From the NCBI GenBank assembly GCA_022578965.1, contig MU400527.1, positions 186,001 through 250,000 of the forward strand: a stretch of DNA of 64,000 nt. Reading direction: 5' to 3'. This document shows positions 42,186 to 43,077 of this stretch, piece after piece. The DNA is from Xylaria sp. FL1777 (taxonomy: Eukaryota; Ascomycota; Sordariomycetes; Xylariales; Xylariaceae). Each line of letters begins with the position of its first letter. Positions within the stretch are counted from its first letter, which is position 1. The notes beneath the pieces are model-generated. The model did not search any database. It saw only the letters and a list, made by a program, of their open reading frames with translations, and was not told the origin of the DNA. Both the position numbers and the translations under genes were made by a program.

Positions 42186-43077
42186 ATGAGGCGCGTGGGC
42201 ATTTCCGTGTCCGTTCTGGCACTGCAGACACTTGTCTCTGCTAGCGGCTGCCCTTTTGCTGATCCTGTCAACCTTCACGCACGAGCTGCCGCTGCACCGC
42301 AGACTCCTATATCGGATGCCACGGTCGACGATAGCACTGGCTACCTAACTGACGACGTCGGTGGACAGATCAGCGACCAAAACAGCTTAAAGGCAGGAGA
42401 GAGAGGTCCAACTCTCCTCGAGGATTTCATCTTTAGGCAGAAGATAACCCACTTTGACCACGAGAGAGTAAGTTGCCCAAGTCATTTCTTAAACACGAAT
42501 ACGCTATCAAGAAAGAACACGAACGAAATCCATAATCTCTTAGGTACCCGAGTAAGCTAACACATCAGGCAGGTTCCGGAACGTGCTGTCCACGCTCGAG
42601 GTGCTGGTGCTCACGGTACTTTCACCAGTTATGGTGACTGGAGTAACCTCACCGCGGCCTCTTTCCTAAAGAGCGCTGGAAAAGAGACTCCCGTCTTTGT
42701 CAGGTTCTCTACCGTGGCGGGTTCTCGTGGAAGTGCTGACACGGCGCGTGATGTTCACGGGTTTGCAACACGTTTGTAAGCTCGATCCCACGATCTAGCC
42801 TCCTCTTTCATGCAACTAATTCGAATTTTAGCTATACTGACGAGGGCAACTTTGGTACGGAGATCGAATTTACTTATTCCCAGTGCTGATGCATGATACT
42901 GATATTTCCCTTTTCAGATATTGTCGGAAATAACATCCCAGTGGTAAGTAATACTGCTGCTGACTCCATTGAACTATTCTCTTTACTCTTACGCTCCGGC
43001 GATGATCAACTATGGCTTCTCTCCCTGTCCTTGATTCTCGTTCTTTTATAACAAATACTAATTCTCGTCATTATAGT
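42186..43077 (+). CDS. Large-subunit secreted catalase, 5' portion (gene split by retrotransposon)
   Basis: Exons 42186-42467, 42573-42775, 42832-42854, 42918-42943 and a single-base exon at 43077 encode residues 1-178 plus one base. A signal peptide (MRRVGISVSVLALQTLVSA) starts the protein. Catalytic His101 sits in VPERAVHARGAGAHG and the active-site Asn174 in FDIVGNN. Introns of 105, 56, 63 and 133 nt have good donors; branch points GCTAAC and TACTAAT are visible. The 133-nt intron ends ATTATAG, then one T, then a perfect GTAAGT donor. Adding that T to the 7-nt exon at 58,167 restores VFFIQ; without it the frame shifts. The next intron holds the 14,960-bp element, placed after its CTAAT branch point (43,180-43,184) and before its acceptor. 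The coding sequence shows no stop or RIP damage. With the 3' portion the model gives 734 residues, the CAT-1/CatB size. Expression across a 15-kb intron is doubtful, so this is probably a disrupted gene. Confidence 0.85.

What the first reader, a model, noticed from the sequence alone, without database searches (positions are those of the whole stretch)
43077..43077. Apparent one-nucleotide coding exon in the catalase gene
Exon 42918-42943 ends in frame at GTG. An intron with a TACTAAT branch point and ATTATAG acceptor follows, then a single T, then a perfect GTAAGT donor. Adding this T to the 7-nt exon TTTTTAT (58,167-58,173) and the C at 58,313 gives GTG TTT TTT ATC CAA, that is VFFIQ, invariant in this catalase family. 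Leaving it out shifts the frame. With it, eleven exons sum to 2,205 nt, exactly 735 codons. One-base exons are extraordinarily rare, and the arrangement resembles the nested stwintrons known from Pezizomycotina. The donors after the 1-nt and the 7-nt exon share the same ten bases, TGTAAGTAAA, hinting at intron duplication.
Basis: partly seen in the sequence, partly recalled or inferred. Interest (0 to 1): 0.85.

Follow-up and report, generated by a model that had tools for sequence, protein, structure and literature searches.

The report
One-letter exon in a fungal catalase
In a Xylaria-like fungus a catalase gene appears to contain an exon of a single nucleotide, a feature apparently shared by its relatives and missed by gene-prediction software, next to a later retrotransposon insertion that probably disables this copy.

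Summary
At 43077 a single T lies between a complete intron (42944-43076, TACTAAT branch point, TATAG) and a perfect GTAAGT donor. Of all splice paths tried, exactly one restores the family motif VFFIQ, and it uses this T plus the 7-nt exon 58167-58173. Branch point plus YAG-N-GTAAGT arises in 37 of 200,000 shuffles of such an intron. The 15-kb insert is an LTR retrotransposon; without it the next intron is an ordinary 125 nt.

The comparative evidence is protein models only. Of the 120 best hits, 33 lack [V/I]FFIQ and 87 have it; the 33 and the window form one clade of Xylaria, Nemania and kin. Some broken models can be decoded: X. polymorpha and X. arbuscula have G, not T, before the 7-nt exon, X. 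hypoxylon and X. grammica use a 7-nt exon, and three models start an exon at the acceptor before the T. So a T lost only here is unlikely.

It is not a stwintron, and intron duplication is not supported. It is probably a further single-nucleotide exon, after Arabidopsis APC11 and Fusarium CYP621A. No RNA or orthologous DNA could be read.

The parts
42186..60476 (+). large-subunit catalase gene (CATB/catalase-3 type), 11 exons, 734 codons plus stop, spanning a 15-kb insertion
   Evidence: spliced frame open throughout; 89% identity to catalase of Xylaria sp. FL0043; solved relatives include catalase-phenol oxidase and catalase-3 entries
42832..42854 (+). exon 3, 23 nt
42918..42943 (+). exon 4, 26 nt, ends in frame at GTG
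42944..43076 (+). intron 4, 133 nt, GTAAGT ... TACTAAT ... CATTATAG
   Evidence: donor 6/6; branch A 16 nt from the intron end, the A counted
43077..43077 (+). exon 5, one nucleotide (T), first base of the first Phe codon of VFFIQ
43078..58166 (+). intron 5, GTAAGT ... CAACAG; 125 nt without the retrotransposon, 15,089 nt with it
   Evidence: branch site GGCTAAT 20 nt from the intron end in the empty-site model
43197..58156 (.). LTR retrotransposon, AT-rich with RIP-like changes (about 14% GC); LTRs 43197-43500 and 57853-58156; target-site duplication (A)CTAC at 43193-43196 and 58157-58160
   Evidence: 53 transitions and 0 transversions between LTRs; 40 further matches of the LTR among 40 scored of 445 candidates
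58167..58173 (+). exon 6, 7 nt, TTTTTAT
58174..58312 (+). intron 6, 139 nt, GTAAGT ... CAAACAG
58313..58358 (+). exon 7, 46 nt, opens with the C that completes ATC

Best explanation
The T at 43077 is a genuine one-nucleotide coding exon of a catalase-3-type gene, inherited from the common ancestor of Xylaria, Nemania and their close kin. Three introns of ordinary size (133, 125 and 139 nt) cut the Phe-Phe-Ile stretch into T, TTTTTAT and C. Each intron is recognised across itself (intron definition), so the exon need not be bound as a unit. Because the acceptor of intron 4 and the donor of intron 5 are one base apart, the two introns are probably removed one after the other: taking intron 4 first leaves GTGT before a GTAAGT donor, taking intron 5 first leaves TATAG before TTTTTTAT, and both orders give VFFIQ. 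Joining the outer sites directly skips the T and truncates the protein after 193 codons. Later an LTR retrotransposon inserted between branch point and acceptor of intron 5 and took on RIP-like mutations, probably silencing this copy. Shown: the sequence, the uniqueness of the path, the insertion, the clade-wide failure of gene models. Inferred: splicing itself, its order, common descent of the T, and silencing.
For: Only 1 path restores VFFIQ; its three donors are 6/6 GTAAGT with branch sites 16, 20 and 26 nt from the intron ends. Chance of the signature 37 of 200,000. 33 of 120 listed homologues lack [V/I]FFIQ, and these 33 plus the window form one set of 34 (bootstrap 98, SH-aLRT 78) in a tree of 79 of the 121 sequences built from the part downstream of the junction; the other 87 keep the motif. 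The fault is local: an indel at residues 161-200 in 25 of 32 broken rows (P0054 left out) against 2 of 87 intact ones, and at most 1 of 32 in any other bin from 61 to 560. 12 of 30 broken models with a comparable peptide are reproduced letter for letter (Q/R in DAI[QR]F treated alike) by splice sites of the window; P0005 and P0010 use the 7-nt exon in the frame that skips 26+1 nt, P0020 uses exon 3, T, exon 7, and P0006 and P0027 use the acceptor before the T and run T-GTAA. In P0052 and P0054 the read-through (T/I)VFIQ puts G, not T, before the 7-nt exon.
Against: No RNA and no orthologous DNA could be read; the orthologue evidence is decoded from conceptual translations, some with other decodings (P0006, P0020, P0027 and P0127 could also arise if intron 4 were absent and exon 4 ended GTGT). 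18 of 30 broken peptides are not reproduced by the window's sites and 3 further models had no comparable peptide. The clade-wide failure could in part reflect the 7-nt exon alone. Three models labelled Xylariaceae sp. (P0047, P0062, P0065) keep VFFIQ; they fall outside the set of 34, P0065 as its nearest neighbour, so the feature is not shown for the whole family. The pattern itself occurs 53 times in the assembly. In this genome the gene carries a 15-kb insert, so the exon may not be spliced here at all.
Confidence: 0.88

Rival explanations
1. No one-nucleotide exon: introns 4 and 5 are one intron, the exon was once 8 nt (TTTTTTAT), and one T was lost by slippage in a dead gene or by a homopolymer error of the assembly.
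For: The 7-nt exon begins with a run of five T, and the gene carries a large insert, so it may be a pseudogene.
Against: The AG-T-GTAAGT with its branch point would then be an accident (37 of 200,000 shuffles). In P0052 and P0054, records of two other species, the base before the 7-nt exon is G; P0005 and P0010 also use a 7-nt exon. The rest of the 2,205-nt frame has no stop or shift.
Confidence: 0.05
2. [quoted passage not shown]
For: The complex begins with two successive Gs, as such stwintrons require (PMC5639578, part 1), and the internal acceptor is followed by T; Xylariaceae have many of them (PMC12403724, passages).
Confidence: 0.02
3. The 1-nt exon is a derived state of some species only; the ancestor had a 27-nt exon 4 ending GTGT plus the 7-nt exon, and intron 4 was gained later in part of the clade.
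For: PVCNQ in P0006 and P0027 and PVCE-stop in P0127 fit an exon running GTG-T-GTRA without intron 4.
Against: In 18 of 24 broken models that keep exon 4 the residue after PV has a codon that cannot start with T, which most simply fits an intron directly after GTG, among them the early-branching P0051 and P0056.
Confidence: 0.05

Closest known systems
APC11 single-nucleotide exon of Arabidopsis (PMC4674806, part 1 of 3 read)
   Same: one constitutive nuclear coding nucleotide between two introns, frame lost without it
   Different: a plant gene, proven with constructs and cDNA; no such proof here, and here a 7-nt exon stands next to the single base
CYP621A one-nucleotide exon of Fusarium (PMC12940212, parts 1 and 2 of 3 read)
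   Same: fungal, conserved within a genus, found because a strongly conserved motif needs one base; all but one of the deposited transcripts listed there were wrong at the spot
   Different: the exon is G inside AGGGT and is supported by SRA reads; the authors call it the second case known and the first in a fungal gene
[D1,2] stwintrons of Hypoxylaceae and Xylariaceae (PMC12403724 and PMC9024468, passages; PMC5639578, part 1 of 6)
   Same: two adjoining introns removed in sequence, intron definition, outer-site joining shifts the frame
   Different: there the internal intron splits the external donor itself; here one coding base lies between and both introns are complete
recursive splicing through zero-length exons (PMC5126111, PMC2773006, search listing only)
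   Same: acceptor next to a donor, stepwise removal (details recalled)
   Different: no base is kept there, one coding base here; introns here are short
one-base exons in mitochondrial genes (placozoan cox1, PMC5436844; term also in PMC12308204 on Ophiostoma mitogenomes; search listings only)
   Same: exon of one base
   Different: organelle genes, not spliceosomal introns (recalled)

Membership tests
single-nucleotide exon | one base flanked by AG and GT between two complete introns | tested here: met
single-nucleotide exon | the base is needed for the frame and a conserved motif | tested here: met
   skipping it gives a stop after 193 codons; the only VFFIQ path found uses it
single-nucleotide exon | conserved in orthologues | tested here: inconclusive
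   only protein models available: a matching deficit in the clade, three models use the site, with other decodings possible
single-nucleotide exon | present in mRNA | not testable with these tools
   no RNA data on hand
stwintron | internal intron interrupts donor, branch point or acceptor of an external intron | tested here: not met
   intron 4 ends one base before an uninterrupted GTAAGT; the [D1,2] reading gives no in-frame VFIQ or VFFIQ
sister stwintrons / repeated intron family | sequence-similar copies elsewhere in the genome | tested here: not met
   42944-43194 and intron 6 match only themselves at E up to 10 in the own assembly; the tool warns that a missing match does not show a sequence is rare

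The most novel reading that the evidence does not exclude
In the ancestor of the Xylaria-Nemania clade an intron entered one base upstream of an existing donor, perhaps by the same route that spreads [D1,2] stwintrons in this group, and created an enduring array of exons of 23, 26, 1 and 7 nt in which three introns cut eight coding bases. One-nucleotide exons would then be near misses of stwintron insertion, and many more should hide in these genomes where gene models break in conserved motifs.
Probability: 0.2. Interest if true: 0.75.

Novelty: new member of a known kind. Interest (0 to 1): 0.62.

Why it matters
In the papers found here, nuclear one-nucleotide exons were known from one plant gene and one fungal P450 subfamily. 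[quoted passage not shown] If true, all 33 catalase records of this clade seen here are wrong at one of the protein's most conserved stretches.

Tried and rejected
Intron duplication: local alignments of introns 4-5, 4-6 and 5-6 do not stand out (171, 187 and 66 of 500 shuffles score as high; 485, 193 and 438 of 500 with donor and acceptor removed). Membership in a repeated intron family: only self matches. A same-position intron in the paralogue at G000:C22:311.5 kb: read by eye, its intron lies three bases further on, GTT TTT T|TC, so it gives no support. Structured RNA in 42000-60700: no Rfam match at gathering score. Orthologous DNA in viral contigs and genome contigs: 1 locus and the best 80 of 572, no fungal title among the 80. 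Papers, judged by their listings: 'stwintron', 'single-nucleotide exon', 'one-nucleotide exon', '1-nt exon', microexon with fungi and Pezizomycotina, catalase with Xylaria and exon, recursive splicing with zero-length exon, 'smallest exon' with fungus, and a mixed list with single-base exon terms (20 of 137 listed) showed no catalase case.

Full report
What is there. The gene at 42186-60476 encodes a 734-residue large-subunit catalase. Eleven exons of 282, 203, 23, 26, 1, 7, 46, 138, 363, 208 and 908 nt sum to 2,205 nt without an internal stop, and every intron is GT-AG. The best hit is catalase of Xylaria sp. FL0043 at 89% identity, so the window comes from a Xylaria-like fungus; the assembly has 58.7 Mb in 588 contigs. 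The best solved relatives are catalase-phenol oxidase and catalase-3 entries, and the two alignments printed show the junction as GNNIPVFFIQDAIQFPD.

The insert. From 43197 to 58156 lies a sequence of about 14% GC bounded by direct repeats of 304 nt; the left copy begins TG and ends TA, the right one begins TA and ends CA. The copies differ by 53 transitions and 0 transversions, as expected of RIP, with (A)CTAC on both sides as target-site duplication. The LTR has 40 further matches in the assembly, 39 of them over nearly its whole length; only 40 of 445 candidates were scored. The element lies between the branch site and the acceptor of intron 5; without it that intron is 125 nt, in line with its neighbours of 133 and 139 nt. 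An intron whose branch site lies 15 kb from its acceptor is unlikely to be spliced in a fungus (inference), so this copy is probably silent, although its coding sequence is otherwise intact.

The one-base exon. After GTG the protein needs TTY TTY AT to meet C CAA. The sequence offers T (43077), then TTTTTAT (58167-58173). A stricter search found 13 in-frame paths of which one is right; its three donors all match GTAAGT 6 of 6. Dinucleotide shuffles of the 259-nt would-be single intron hold AG-N-GTAAGT in 374 of 200,000 cases and with a branch point in 37. Genome-wide the pattern CTAAY-N6-30-YAG-N-GTAAGT is found 53 times on both strands against 26 for the reversed pattern, so it is not by itself a sign of an exon. 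Skipping the T ends the protein after 193 codons.

Orthologues. No orthologous DNA could be fetched, so I read the deposited protein models. Of the 120 best hits (of 7,999 scored), 87 have [V/I]FFIQ and 33 do not. The 33 are named Xylaria, Nemania, Astrocystis, Ustulina, Xylariaceae sp. FL1651 and FL1019, and one Hypoxylon argillaceum. In a tree of 79 of the 121 sequences, built from residues downstream of the junction, the 33 and the window make up one set of 34 (bootstrap 98, SH-aLRT 78, just short of the program's star). Three models labelled Xylariaceae sp. (P0047, P0062, P0065) keep the motif and fall outside this set, so I claim the clade and not the whole family. The damage is confined to this spot: 25 of 32 broken rows (P0054 left out as a short model) have an indel at residues 161-200 against 2 of 87 intact rows, and no other bin between 61 and 560 has more than 1 of 32; the bins 1-60 (4 of 32) and 561-734 (30, 10 and 32 of 32) vary, but they vary in the intact rows too.

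Decoding the broken models. I asked which junction peptides the window's own splice sites can produce (GT donors, any AG, introns of at least 40 nt). Of 30 models with a comparable peptide, 12 are reproduced exactly after treating Q and R in [D/N]AI[Q/R]F alike; 18 are not, and 3 models had no comparable peptide. P0005 (X. hypoxylon) and P0010 (X. grammica) come from exon 3 joined to the 7-nt exon, that is, 26+1 nt are left out, which saves the frame. P0020 (Nemania sp. FL0031) comes from exon 3, the single T and exon 7. P0006 (Xylariaceae sp. FL1651) and P0027 (Astrocystis) come from the acceptor before the T followed by T-GTAA. P0002, P0004 and P0056 run GTG-GTAA, the donor of intron 4. The other four (P0007, P0008, P0014, P0018) skip all the small exons and say nothing. 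P0052 (X. polymorpha) and P0054 (X. arbuscula) are not reproduced but read through what must be the end of intron 5 as T-VFIQ and I-VFIQ: in that frame the base eight from the exon end is G, so no contiguous TTYTTYAT exists. Of 24 broken models that keep exon 4, 18 have after PV a residue whose codon cannot begin with T, which most simply fits an intron starting straight after GTG. These are inferences from translations made by software, not DNA. P0006, P0020, P0027 and P0127 have a second decoding in which intron 4 is absent.

Mechanism. Splice-site pairing in these fungi is held to follow intron definition (PMC5639578, part 1; PMC12403724, passages), so a one-base exon is no obstacle in principle. 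Acceptor and donor one base apart can hardly both be occupied, hence stepwise removal is likely (inference). This works like a stwintron but is not one: the donor of intron 5 is uninterrupted, and the [D1,2] reading is out of frame.

Known kinds. Nuclear one-nucleotide exons have been reported in Arabidopsis APC11 (PMC4674806, part 1 of 3 read) and in CYP621A of Fusarium (PMC12940212, parts 1 and 2 of 3 read), which its authors call the second case and the first in a fungal gene. The listings of my searches showed no other fungal nuclear case and none for catalase; one-base exons in mitochondrial genes are listed (PMC5436844, PMC12308204, listings only). This is therefore a probable further member, distinguished by a 7-nt neighbour and an apparently clade-wide age.

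Verdict. A real one-nucleotide exon is by far the best account (0.88); RNA from an uninserted relative would settle it.

Noticed in passing
window 43197-58156; LTR matches in G000: LTR retrotransposon with RIP-like decay inside a 125-nt intron, between branch site and acceptor; LTRs differ by 53 transitions and no transversion; 40 further LTR matches among the candidates scored.
   Followed up: partly
L009 (G000:C22:310000-315000): A second catalase gene (open frame of 803 codons) lies about 65 kb downstream on the same contig; read by eye, its intron splits the same motif three bases further on, GTT TTT T|TC.
   Followed up: partly
P0028: Catalase of 'Hypoxylon argillaceum' groups with Nemania models, not with the Hypoxylon ones, and shares the broken junction; the source strain may be mislabelled.
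   Followed up: no
P0202: The Lipomyces mesembrius catalase model is also disrupted at the same stretch (FYTDEAKLRSQTLSGTLCLSITDAIQF); another unmodelled small exon is possible.
   Followed up: no
window 42776-58509: Exons 3 to 7 total 103 nt (23, 26, 1, 7, 46), so six introns fall within 103 coding bases.
   Followed up: no
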